Positions 26,454-29,951 of a stretch of DNA of 64,000 bases are shown piece after piece. The position numbers were made by a program, and so were the translations under genes. The stretch covers positions 1 through 64,000 of the forward strand of contig JAMXLM010000028.1 in assembly GCA_024280995.1 (NCBI GenBank), given 5' to 3'. Positions within the stretch are counted from its first letter, which is position 1. Each line of letters begins with the position of its first letter. The notes beneath the pieces were generated by a model, which was given only the letters and a program-made list of their open reading frames with translations, did no database searches and was not told the DNA's origin. The stretch is from Candidatus Dormiibacterota bacterium. Lineage in GTDB: Bacteria > Chloroflexota > Dormibacteria > Dormibacterales > Dormibacteraceae.

Positions 26454-27455
26454 TCAGACCAGGAACCTTCCGTTCTCCATGATCTTCCGGCCGTCCACGG
26501 TCACGGTCGCGTGCGAAGCGAGCGCGTCGACATGCGACGGGCACTCCCAGTCCGCCTTCGTCTCGAACGCGTACGGGTCGCCGAACGCGATGTGCACACC
26601 GGGGAACTTCTCGTCCTGCAAGAAGTTGCCGACGATGCGCGTCAGCCCGACGTTGGTGCCGATCGCGAACTCCCCGACGCGGTTCGAGCACGGATGCTGG
26701 GCAAGGTAGGCGCGAAATTCGGCGCCCAGCTGCTCGTTCGGAGTCTCCACCGAAGCCACGCGCCCGCCTTTGATCACGATCCGCACCGGCGGCGACAGCA
26801 CGCGGTACTTCTCCGCGAACCAATCGCCAAGCTCCTCGGCCGCGAGCACTCCGTCCACCGACTGCGGACACGTGAACGTCTCGCCCTCGGGAAGATTGCC
26901 CCAGCGTCCCTGCTCCCAGAACCGGCCGTCGCTCGGGATCCACTTCAGGTTCGGTGAAAAGGTCGCCACCAGGTCGGTGCCGAGCGAGGTCTGCACCGCG
27001 ATCGTGCCGGCGTGCCTCGCGATGTCGTAGATCTTTTGCGTGACGCGATAGATCTCCTGGTAATCGCCGGCCATTCCGTCCCGCATCAGCTCGTCGTCGA
27101 TTCCGATCATGTGGCCGTGGCGGCACCGCAGATCGTCGGCCAGCAGGGTCAGCATCGGTTTGCGAAAGCCAAGCTCTCCGGGCTGCCCGGTACCGACATA
27201 GAAGGACGCGGTGGGCTTGAAGCGATGAATCTCCTCGCCGAGCTCACGCGGAAACGAAGTCGCCGGCCGGCTCATGTGGTCCTCCATCGTCCACGCCTTG
27301 ACCGTCGCCCCGGTGGACCGGACCTCTTCCTCGATGGCTTCCGCGATCTCCATTCGCGGCCGGTCGCGGATGATGAACACGCGATCGTCGGGGCCGATGT
27401 TGAGGCACACGCGAACGGCGTTTCGCGTGCCCGCGGCGAGGTCTGAGCGGATCAC
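26454..27455 (-). CDS. M29-type metallo-aminopeptidase (aminopeptidase T family)
   Basis: A 333-residue cytosolic peptidase of the thermophilic aminopeptidase family (COG2309). Expected metal-site segments are present: PEGETFTCP, NRVGEFAIGTN, PGVHIAFGDPY and CPSHVDALAS. It releases N-terminal residues from peptides. The start is set at GTG 27455 (IRSDLAAGTRNAVRVCLNI); a longer frame upstream runs into the preceding gene. It follows the pseudo-hydrolase gene by 17 bases and is probably in the ECF sigma operon. Confidence 0.85.
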   Translation of the reverse strand: MIRSDLAAGTRNAVRVCLNIGPDDRVFIIRDRPRMEIAEAIEEEVRSTGATVKAWTMEDHMSRPATSFPRELGEEIHRFKPTASFYVGTGQPGELGFRKPMLTLLADDLRCRHGHMIGIDDELMRDGMAGDYQEIYRVTQKIYDIARHAGTIAVQTSLGTDLVATFSPNLKWIPSDGRFWEQGRWGNLPEGETFTCPQSVDGVLAAEELGDWFAEKYRVLSPPVRIVIKGGRVASVETPNEQLGAEFRAYLAQHPCSNRVGEFAIGTNVGLTRIVGNFLQDEKFPGVHIAFGDPYAFETKADWECPSHVDALASHATVTVDGRKIMENGRFLV

Positions 27456-27472
27456 ACCAAAAGGGTACCGGC

Positions 27473-29080
27473 CTACGCGGGGTAGTCGGACGAGCACACC
27501 GTGCCCGTCGCCGGCAGCACGAGCTTGGCCAGGTACGAGTTGACGGCGAGGCGGACACATCCACTGTTCACGTAGGAGAACACCCCGTAGCCATCCCGAG
27601 TCAGAAGCACCGAGCCCGGCAGCTCGGCGTGCACCGCCTGCGCTGCAGCGAGCGAGTAGTACGGGTCATTGGTTCCCCCGATGAGGAGGGCCGGCGGCGC
27701 ACCTAGCGCAGGCAGCGGGCCGGGCGCGGATCTCGCCTTGACCGGCCACGGCGCGCATTCCAGCGGGACGTACTGGAAGGCTGGGCCGAAGATCGGGGAT
27801 GCCTTGCTCAGGGCCTGGCCGAGAGCGCCGTACTGGAGCACGTCGCCCGAGACCTGGTGGTCCGCGCAAAACTGGGCGAGGAACGCTTCGCCCGGCGTCG
27901 CGTAGGCGCCGTCGGAATTCCTACCGGAGTACTGATCCGCCAGAGCGAGCAATCCCGATCCGTCGCCCCCGGCCGCGTCGTCGAGGGCGGTCGCGAGCTG
28001 GTTCCAGTTGTGCGGATCGAGCCCGAGGATGAGGCCGGCGATGACAAGGGTGCGGCTCAGCGCCCTCGAGCCGACCCGGAGTGGGGCCCTGTCGACCGAC
28101 TGCATGAGGCCGCCTAACCGGTCGGCAGGGTCGCCGCCCCGCGCCAGCGGGCAGCTCGCGGAGGAGCGGCAGTACGCGAGGAAAGCCTGCAGGCTCGCCT
28201 CGTAGCCGGCGGCGCGCAGGCGCCATTCGGCGGCCGCGCTCGCTGCAGGGTCGAGCAGGCCGTCGAGCGCGATCGCGCGGACCCGGGTGGGGAAGAGGTG
28301 CGCGTACATCTGGCCGAGGAAGGTGCCGTAGCCGTAACCGAGATACGTGATCCTCGACTCGCCAAGGGCGGCGCGTATCGCGTCCACATCGCGCGCGGCG
28401 CTCGCGGTGTCGACAAAGGGAATGATCCTCCCGGCCTTCTGCTGACACGCCTCCGCCACCGCCTGGTTGGCCTGCAGGAACACGCGTTGCTCGCTGGGGT
28501 CGTCGAGTACCGTGTCGACCTCGTTGATCGCATCTCTCTGCGCGTCGGTGAGGCACTGCACCGGCGAGCTCCTGCCGAACCCGCGCTGGTCGAACGCGAC
28601 CAGATCGAAGCGTTTGAACTGGTCGGCGTAGAAAACGGAGTTCTTCCGCAGGAAATCGACGCCGGCGACAGTAGCGCCGATCAGCAGCGATCCTATCCTG
28701 TGCGCACTGTCGGTCGCGGGTTTGCGGATGACGGCGACGCCGATCGAGCCCGCAGCGGGGTGCGAGTAGTCCAGCGGGACTGTGACGGTGCTGCATTGGA
28801 ACTCGCCACCGCAGCCGCTCCACACCGTGGAGGGTGCGCCGAAGAAGTGCTGCACGGCCAGGAAGGCACCTGTGGCCGCGATAAGGAGCAGGACGATGAG
28901 CACGGCGGCAAGCAGCTGCCGGCCCGGACCGGTGGGGATGGCGAGACGCCGGCCGACCGGTCGCTTGACCTCCGCGGAGCCGAGAGCGGCCATCGTGCGG
29001 CCGAGAAGGCGTGCATCCGGAAAACCCGGGCCGGGGTCGAACGCGTCCGCGAGCCTGCGCCGCAGGATCTCTTCAGCCAT
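27473..29080 (-). CDS. Membrane-anchored degenerate S33-type alpha/beta hydrolase, probable anti-sigma factor
   Basis: A 535-residue protein: N-terminal cytoplasmic segment (about 1-54), one membrane helix at about 55-78 and a large extracytoplasmic domain resembling tripeptidyl-aminopeptidases of family S33. The catalytic machinery looks lost. The nucleophile motif reads GYGYG at 248-252, with Gly250 in place of Ser. The catalytic His position in RDGYGVFSYVNSGCV is Val500. The oxyanion loop normally NPGGPG is replaced by IGATVAG. The Asp of GGTNDP remains. It overlaps the ECF sigma gene by 8 bases. Together this suggests a membrane anti-sigma factor whose outer domain senses a ligand; function is inferred. 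Confidence 0.75.
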   Translation of the reverse strand: MAEEILRRRLADAFDPGPGFPDARLLGRTMAALGSAEVKRPVGRRLAIPTGPGRQLLAAVLIVLLLIAATGAFLAVQHFFGAPSTVWSGCGGEFQCSTVTVPLDYSHPAAGSIGVAVIRKPATDSAHRIGSLLIGATVAGVDFLRKNSVFYADQFKRFDLVAFDQRGFGRSSPVQCLTDAQRDAINEVDTVLDDPSEQRVFLQANQAVAEACQQKAGRIIPFVDTASAARDVDAIRAALGESRITYLGYGYGTFLGQMYAHLFPTRVRAIALDGLLDPAASAAAEWRLRAAGYEASLQAFLAYCRSSASCPLARGGDPADRLGGLMQSVDRAPLRVGSRALSRTLVIAGLILGLDPHNWNQLATALDDAAGGDGSGLLALADQYSGRNSDGAYATPGEAFLAQFCADHQVSGDVLQYGALGQALSKASPIFGPAFQYVPLECAPWPVKARSAPGPLPALGAPPALLIGGTNDPYYSLAAAQAVHAELPGSVLLTRDGYGVFSYVNSGCVRLAVNSYLAKLVLPATGTVCSSDYPA

Positions 29081-29618
29081 TCGCCCTGACCTCGCCGGCT
29101 TGAAGGGCCGGACGCAGCCGCTTCAGCGCTCGGTGGATTCTTGTCTTCGCGCCGGCCTCGGAGATGCCGAGCGCCGCCCCGACGTCGTTCAGCGACATGT
29201 CGAGGTGGAAGTGAAGGAGGAGGGCGACGCGCTGAGCGTGCGGAAGACTCGCCACCGCGCGGCGCAGCTCCTCGCCCTCGAGCCAGCTCGCCGTTTCGTC
29301 GGCCGCACTCGGAGCCGGAACTTCGGGCACGCGAATCATCTGCCACCACCTGTCCCGGCGGAGCTCCCGGCACTGGTTGGCGACGATGCCCATGAACCAG
29401 GGCTGGAACCTTCTGCCCACGCGTATGTTTTTCATTCGCCGCCAGGCCCGCAGCGCCGCTTCCTGGAACGCGTCCTCGGCCTCAGAGCGATCGCGCAGCA
29501 TCGCGAACGCGAGCCTGGTGGCGGGACGGACCGCGGGCTCGAGCAGTCGCTCATACGCGCCCCGATCCCCGGCCCTGGCTCGGGCGATGAGAGCTTGCTC
29601 GGCTTCATCCGCGGTCAC
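29073..29618 (-). CDS. ECF-type RNA polymerase sigma factor
   Basis: A 181-residue sigma factor with region 2 (RLAFAMLRDRSEAEDAFQEA) and region 4 (LPHAQRVALLLHFHLDMSLNDVGAALGIS, with the second recognition helix following). GTG start. Its stop lies inside the start of the membrane pseudo-hydrolase gene, the usual layout of a sigma/anti-sigma pair. It probably controls its own operon and an envelope or nutrient response. Confidence 0.93.
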   Translation of the reverse strand: MTADEAEQALIARARAGDRGAYERLLEPAVRPATRLAFAMLRDRSEAEDAFQEAALRAWRRMKNIRVGRRFQPWFMGIVANQCRELRRDRWWQMIRVPEVPAPSAADETASWLEGEELRRAVASLPHAQRVALLLHFHLDMSLNDVGAALGISEAGAKTRIHRALKRLRPALQAGEVRANG

Positions 29619-29702
29619 CTGTCCATCGCTCTACATCCGTCCTACGGGCCGGGCGCCCGCGAGGGTGTCAGGTGCGACTCGCGGTGGCACAATCGAGATC
29701 TG

Positions 29703-29951
29703 ATGGCCGGGCTAGAGGAGCGCGACCTCCGGAGCCTGGAGCGAAGGAGCATGTACTCCATCTTCGCCCCGCTCGACGGCAGCGACGGGCTCTCGCGAGA
29801 GCTCGAGCTCGACGACGAGGCCAACCCGACCCGCGCCGGCGAGCTCGCCGTGTGGGGATTCATCCGCCGCCGGTTGCGCCGCCGGCGCAAGCCTGCGATC
29901 GACGACGCGTGGGCTTCGGCGATGTTCGTCTTCGTCCGCCGATTTCGCTAG
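29703..29951 (+). CDS. Small basic hypothetical protein
   Basis: An 82-residue frame beginning MAGLEERDLRSLERRSM, with an Arg cluster FIRRRLRRRRKP in the middle and a hydrophobic C-terminus (SAMFVFVRRF). Codon third positions are G/C-rich, as in real genes here. It is divergent from the sigma factor and overlaps the HNH gene tail-to-tail by 4 bases. A competing frame on the opposite strand (29642-29890) is less convincing. No family recognised. Confidence 0.5.
   Translation: MAGLEERDLRSLERRSMYSIFAPLDGSDGLSRELELDDEANPTRAGELAVWGFIRRRLRRRRKPAIDDAWASAMFVFVRRFR

What the first reader, a model, noticed from the sequence alone, without database searches (positions are those of the whole stretch)
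26454..29618. ECF sigma factor paired with a membrane-anchored pseudo-hydrolase, plus an aminopeptidase
The sigma gene overlaps a protein with a short cytoplasmic segment, one membrane helix and a large outer S33-type alpha/beta-hydrolase domain. The nucleophile Ser is Gly250 (GYGYG), the catalytic His is Val500, and the oxyanion loop is rewritten. A dead hydrolase fold on the outside of an anti-sigma-like protein looks like a sensor: it could bind a peptide or ester that an active homologue would cleave, and release the sigma factor. An M29 aminopeptidase follows by 17 bases and could process the ligand. I know of no described sigma/anti-sigma pair of this type.
Basis: partly seen in the sequence, partly recalled or inferred. 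Interest (0 to 1): 0.78.

Follow-up and report, generated by a model that had tools for sequence, protein, structure and literature searches.

The report
Anti-sigma factor with dead-hydrolase sensor head
In a soil bacterium of the phylum Dormibacterota, a gene switch (a sigma factor) appears to be held by a membrane protein whose outer part is a peptidase-like enzyme that has lost its cutting residues, most likely so that it can bind and report an outside molecule; it is one head among many that these bacteria have put on the same kind of holder.

Summary
An ECF sigma gene (29073-29618, minus) overlaps by 8 bp a 535-residue protein with a two-helix cytoplasmic segment, one membrane helix and a Hip1-like (S33) alpha/beta-hydrolase outside. 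The nucleophile is Gly250 and the catalytic His is Val500. Four such sigma-linked proteins were found in one genus. All four have lost Ser and His, form one clade (100/99) and are under purifying selection; all 31 unlinked relatives scored keep Ser and His. Two more genomes carry the orthologous sigma, the same cytoplasmic segment and the same promoter (TGACACC-N16-CCGTAG), but a beta-propeller as outer domain. Related sigma genes, up to a dozen per genome, are followed by single-pass proteins with still other outer domains. Best reading: an anti-sigma factor with an exchangeable sensor head, here a pseudo-hydrolase. Sigma contact and ligand are inferred. Verdict: new variant of a known kind.

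The parts
29073..29618 (-). ECF sigma factor, 181 aa, GTG start, regions 2 and 4
   Evidence: Pfam Sigma70_r2 and Sigma70_r4_2 over cut-off; orthologues 68-74% identical in 5 other genomes
27473..29080 (-). anti-sigma-like membrane protein with pseudo-hydrolase outer domain, 535 aa
28925..29080 (-). cytoplasmic segment, residues 1-52; predicted helices 2-13 and 23-35 (low confidence when modelled without partner); MAEExLRRxLxxAFDPGPxFPxxxLLxRTMAxL
   Evidence: conserved core in 6 orthologues; helices in model; profile of paralogous segments scores it above all but 1 of 18000 shuffles
28844..28924 (-). transmembrane helix, residues about 53-79
   Evidence: hydropathy maximum at residues 56-74, mean 2.88; helix 53-79 in the model
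27476..28825 (-). outer pseudo-hydrolase domain, residues 86-535, Hip1/S33 fold
   Evidence: PF00561 and PF08386; Hip1 E 5e-54; pLDDT mostly above 90; Foldseek TMt 0.88 to Hip1
28331..28333 (-). codon 250, Gly in place of the nucleophile Ser (Hip1 Ser228)
   Evidence: Gly in 4 of 4 sigma-linked, Ser in 31 of 31 unlinked
27581..27583 (-). codon 500, Val in place of the catalytic His (Hip1 His490)
   Evidence: V/F/T/A in sigma-linked, His in 31 of 31 unlinked
27656..27658 (-). codon 475, Tyr (Trp in the other three) in place of an invariant Thr (Hip1 Thr466)
   Evidence: Hip1 T466A is a solved mutant
27665..27667 (-). codon 472, the triad Asp, kept
29642..29670 (-). predicted ECF promoter of the sigma gene: TGACACC (29664-29670), 16 bp, CCGTAG (29642-29647)
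   Evidence: identical motif and spacing upstream of all six orthologous sigma genes, also where flanking DNA is unrelated; the only exact match in the window's genome

Best explanation
This is a self-regulated ECF sigma / membrane anti-sigma pair. The short two-helix cytoplasmic segment of the 535-aa protein holds the sigma factor at the membrane. The outer Hip1-like domain has lost catalysis and now binds, without cleaving, the kind of molecule that the active paralogues cleave (a peptide with a free N-terminus or an ester). Binding, directly or through regulated proteolysis, releases the sigma factor, which then transcribes its own operon from TGACACC-N16-CCGTAG. The pair belongs to a lineage-wide repertoire in which related sigma factors carry the same kind of holder with different outer heads. 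Shown: gene order, domains, loss of Ser and His, co-segregation with sigma linkage, single clade, purifying selection, outer-domain swap, conserved promoter-like motif. Inferred: sigma binding by residues 1-52, ligand binding, the release step, autoregulation.
For: Ser and His lost in 4 of 4 sigma-linked and 0 of 31 unlinked homologues; one clade 100/99; dN/dS about 0.2-0.4 by NG86 for the dead domain; the fold is kept. The N-terminal segment is strongly conserved in exactly the six genomes that carry the orthologous sigma gene (120-149 bits against 23 for the next), whether the outer domain is a pseudo-hydrolase, a PD40 or a BNR/Ycf48 propeller. Of 46 sigma/next-gene pairs read (the window and the 45), 43 have a single-pass protein with a 37-70-residue N-terminal segment. 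The promoter motif is identical in six genomes. Precedents: Tt-TolB (39-residue N-terminus binds sigma in yeast two-hybrid, one TM helix, propeller outside; promoter tGTTAC-N16-CGTC; PMC3397946); CnrY, two helices embrace sigma (PMC4598750); RsgI6, GH10 head binds but hardly cleaves (PMC4711584); Hip1(S228A) folds as wild type and seems to bind GroEL2 more strongly (PMC4022732). M50 (site-2-protease-type) genes occur in the genome.
Against: No contact between the segment and the sigma factor is shown: modelling of the window pair was not accepted, and a paralogous pair gave pTM 0.45 with a low-confidence segment. The segment matches no Pfam anti-sigma family and no solved anti-sigma chain. Exact promoter copies beyond the operon are absent from the window's genome, so no regulon points to a ligand. 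Only four pseudo-hydrolase cases, all in one genus.
Confidence: 0.66

Rival explanations
1. Anti-sigma factor whose outer pseudo-hydrolase does not bind a small ligand but docks a protein partner (for instance an active Hip1-like paralogue or an exported protein) or only shields a cleavage site, with signalling by proteolysis of the stalk.
For: Many outer heads of the sister pairs are propellers and other likely binding folds; in RsiV of B. subtilis a protein (lysozyme) is the bound signal (PMC4183432 abstract); M50 proteases are present.
Against: Sites invariant or nearly so in the unlinked enzymes and changed here include the nucleophile, the catalytic His and Thr466 of Hip1 (250, 500, 475, with 474 and 165), which hints at a changed pocket more than a new surface; not decisive.
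Confidence: 0.2
2. The outer domain is a decaying enzyme without function; the protein works only through its N-terminus and membrane helix.
For: Four different residues replace the His at 500 (V, F, T, A), as expected once it is not needed.
Against: dN/dS about 0.2-0.4 over the domain, no frameshift or stop in the copies read, Gly250 fixed in all four, high-confidence fold.
Confidence: 0.08
3. One reading: the following M29 aminopeptidase processes the ligand and belongs to the system.
For: M29 follows the pair in the window, G014 and G005.
Against: In G008, G011 and G013 the M29 gene and the small ORF adjoin each other with no sigma pair between; M29 is cut down to a 48-aa remnant in G003 while the pair is intact; no M29 gene was found in the two genomes with propeller-type pairs.
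Confidence: 0.05

Closest known systems
Tt-RpoE1 / Tt-TolB of Thermoanaerobacter tengcongensis (PMC3397946)
   Same: ECF sigma gene followed at once by a single-TM protein with a ~39-residue N-terminus that binds sigma and a large outer domain; sigma reads its own promoter with a 16-bp spacer and a CGT core in the -10 element
   Different: outer domain is a TolB propeller, not a former S33 enzyme
CnrY, class II anti-sigma factor of Cupriavidus metallidurans (PMC4598750, PMC7406223)
   Different: no sequence similarity found; CnrY is signalled through the separate sensor CnrX
RsgI6 of Clostridium thermocellum (PMC4711584)
   Same: anti-sigma factor whose outer sensor is a degenerate hydrolase (GH10, very low activity, binding kept)
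   Different: pairs with SigI, has an RsgI_N domain, senses polysaccharide; here S33 fold with Ser and His replaced and an ECF sigma factor
Hip1/CaeA (Rv2224c) and related S33-type enzymes (TnmK1/K2)
   Same: fold, domain order and Asp of the triad
   Different: nucleophile Ser and His lost; membrane helix behind a sigma-linked cytoplasmic segment in place of the usual export signal
RsiV of Bacillus subtilis (PMC4183432 abstract)
   Same: the anti-sigma factor itself is a receptor for an outside molecule
   Different: outer domain not compared here; ligand known (lysozyme)

Membership tests
ECF sigma factor | sigma regions 2 and 4 only | tested here: met
   PF04542 and PF08281 over cut-off, 181 aa
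ECF sigma factor | autoregulated bipartite promoter | tested here: inconclusive
   TGACACC-N16-CCGTAG conserved upstream of six orthologues; no transcription data
Class II (CnrY-like) anti-sigma factor | short cytoplasmic segment of two helices, then membrane helix | tested here: inconclusive
   predicted helices 2-13 and 23-35 (low confidence), TM 53-79
Class II (CnrY-like) anti-sigma factor | binds sigma regions 2 and 4 | tested here: inconclusive
Class II (CnrY-like) anti-sigma factor | sequence similarity to CnrY | tested here: not met
   profile search of PDB chains gives no anti-sigma chain
Class I and RsgI-type anti-sigma factors | Pfam anti-sigma domain at the N-terminus | tested here: not met
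   no such domain at E 0.1
S33 / Hip1 peptidase | Hip1-type alpha/beta-hydrolase fold | tested here: met
S33 / Hip1 peptidase | catalytic Ser in GxSxG | tested here: not met
   Gly250
S33 / Hip1 peptidase | catalytic His | tested here: not met
   Val500
M29 aminopeptidase (following gene) | Pfam M29 over cut-off | tested here: met
   44.9 bits, cut-off 27, C-terminal part only
M29 aminopeptidase (following gene) | metal ligands and peptidase activity | not tested
   candidate E/E/H/H/D motifs seen by eye only; solved AmpS only E 0.1

The most novel reading that the evidence does not exclude
A serine-peptidase fold has been turned into the sensor head of an anti-sigma factor by loss of Ser and His, as one member of a repertoire in one bacterial family (Dormibacterota) in which a sigma/anti-sigma cassette takes up different outer heads (propellers, AMIN-like domains, a pseudo-peptidase). 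It would be the first pseudo-peptidase anti-sigma sensor known to me and a natural record of receptor-head exchange on an orthologous sigma factor with holder and promoter unchanged.
Probability: 0.5. Interest if true: 0.7.

Novelty: new variant of a known kind. Interest (0 to 1): 0.56.

Why it matters
It links loss of catalysis to gain of a signalling role with a clean comparison set: four dead sigma-linked copies against 31 intact unlinked ones, and two genomes where the same sigma and holder carry another head. This makes the question of how enzymes become receptors testable with few residues (250, 475, 500) and a predicted promoter as read-out. It also points to a large unstudied set of outside sensors in a soil phylum known mostly from metagenomes.

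Tried and rejected
Joint model of a paralogous pair (L118, stop read as a residue): well-folded sigma domains but low-confidence segment and pTM 0.45, so no contact claimed. Regulon by promoter pattern: exact matches only at the sigma genes, apart from one inside an amidase gene in G026, and matches with one mismatch not far above the control counts, so no regulon claimed. M29 as part of the system: rejected on the adjoining arrangement without the pair and on the remnant. Profile of the segment against solved chains: nothing. Literature: no paper in the library with anti-sigma, pseudoenzyme and ECF sigma together, none on Dormibacterota sigma factors among the listed hits; the ECF re-classification paper (10.1093/nar/gkaa1229) is not held, so no ECF group number is given.

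Full report
Setting. The window is part of contig C28 of a 3.0-Mb draft genome in 46 contigs. Named relatives of the N-terminal segment in GTDB are metagenome genomes filed as Chloroflexi or Candidatus Dormiibacterota.

The observation. The sigma gene (29073-29618, minus), the 535-residue protein (27473-29080, minus; 8-bp overlap) and the M29-like gene (26454-27455, minus; 17 bp further on) are as described. The outer domain is most like M. tuberculosis Hip1, E 5e-54. AlphaFold2 with 20 aligned sequences gives mean pLDDT 85, mostly above 90 outside, and the model matches Hip1 structures with TM 0.88 by target length and 2.5 A rmsd. Hip1's triad is Ser228, Asp463, His490 (PMC4022732); the same columns here read Gly250, Asp472, Val500.

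Do sigma linkage and triad loss go together? In the relatives searched, four genomes hold a sigma-linked copy: the window, G003, G014 and G005 (split over two contigs). All four have Gly for Ser and V, F, T or A for His; 31 unlinked homologues all keep Ser and His (five of these lie near a contig end, so the absence of a sigma gene is not fully testable for them). Thr475 (Hip1 Thr466) is also lost, to Tyr or Trp, together with Ala474 and Pro165, which are nearly invariant elsewhere. The four form one clade with support 100/99. Pairwise NG86 dN/dS is about 0.2-0.4 for the outer domain (dS near 1 in most pairs, 0.64 in the closest, so rough). So the domain is kept by selection while its catalysis is gone.

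The holder stays, the head changes. A profile of the N-terminal segment finds six strong matches in 110 genomes of the class (120-149 bits, next 23), exactly where the orthologous sigma gene is (65-81% identity among the six). Four have the pseudo-hydrolase. G033 has a PD40 propeller and G026 a BNR/Ycf48-type propeller. Upstream of all six sigma genes lies TGACACC-N16-CCGTAG with identical spacing, also in G033 and G026 where the surrounding DNA does not align. It is the only exact match in the window's genome, and one-mismatch matches are not far above control counts. This fits an autoregulated ECF promoter; autoregulation itself is inferred.

A repertoire. Family genomes carry up to 12 sigma genes of this kind at E <= 1e-20 (G022). 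For 45 sigma genes, the five orthologues included, the next gene was read; with the window, 43 of 46 pairs show a 37-70-residue N-terminal segment and one membrane helix. Outer domains named by Pfam are BNR/Sortilin/Ycf48 propellers, Vgb lyase, NHL, AMIN-like and DUF4232, with one weak kelch match; several have no name. A profile built from 34 paralogous segments scores the window's segment above all but 1 of 18000 composition-preserving shuffles, and those of three other orthologues above all but 2 to 5; the remaining two do less well (31 and 115 of 18000). So the segments are probably one family, though the similarity is weak.

The aminopeptidase. M29 occurs in 19 of 42 family genomes. In G008, G011 and G013 the small ORF that flanks the sigma gene in the window (29703-29951, plus) and the M29 gene are direct divergent neighbours, and the short spacer between them resembles both flanks of the sigma pair in the window. 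So the pair either was inserted there or left cleanly; the direction is not settled. In G003 only a 48-residue remnant of M29 is left. M29 is therefore a neighbour, not a part.

How it most likely works. Tt-TolB of T. tengcongensis has the same plan: residues 1-39 bind the sigma factor in yeast two-hybrid, residues 39-61 span the membrane, a propeller lies outside, the full protein inhibits transcription, and the sigma factor reads tGTTAC-N16-CGTC (PMC3397946). CnrY shows how two short helices can embrace an ECF sigma factor (PMC4598750, PMC7406223). RsgI6 shows a degenerate hydrolase as sensor of an anti-sigma factor (PMC4711584). Hip1(S228A) keeps its fold and appears to bind its substrate GroEL2 more strongly (PMC4022732). 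Together these support a receptor that binds without cleaving. Release could be direct or by proteolysis; M50 proteases are present but none is linked to this locus. Contact with the sigma factor is not shown here: the window pair could not be modelled, and a paralogous pair gave no confident docking.

Novelty. The architecture and the idea of a degenerate enzyme as anti-sigma sensor are known. A pseudo-S33 head, its strict co-segregation with sigma linkage, and the exchange of heads on an orthologous sigma factor were not found in the library searched. I file it as a new variant of a known kind.

Noticed in passing
family genomes, e.g. L101, L105, L114, L122, L124, L134, L140: Repertoire of related ECF sigma genes (up to 12 matches per genome at E <= 1e-20, in G022), nearly all followed by single-pass proteins with diverse outer domains (propellers of several types, AMIN-like, DUF4232, several unnamed).
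   Followed up: partly
window 29703-29951 (+): Small conserved ORF (82 aa), divergent to the sigma gene in the four pseudo-hydrolase loci and directly next to M29 in G008, G011 and G013.
   Followed up: partly
L145, L146, L147 against window 27456-29702: Sites without the sigma pair: the short spacer between small ORF and M29 resembles both flanks of the sigma/anti-sigma pair, so the two genes look like a clean cassette; insertion or loss is not settled.
   Followed up: yes
L032:5179-5502: M29 gene reduced to a C-terminal remnant of about 48 residues in G003, with a GrpB-like gene behind it (named by eye).
   Followed up: no
L037:2203-3123 (-): The propeller-type pair of G026 is followed by an esterase of the PHB-depolymerase/carboxylesterase kind; the G033 pair is followed by further PD40 proteins.
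   Followed up: no
L023 (G008:C22): Two tandem Hip1-like hydrolases with intact triads in one genome.
   Followed up: no
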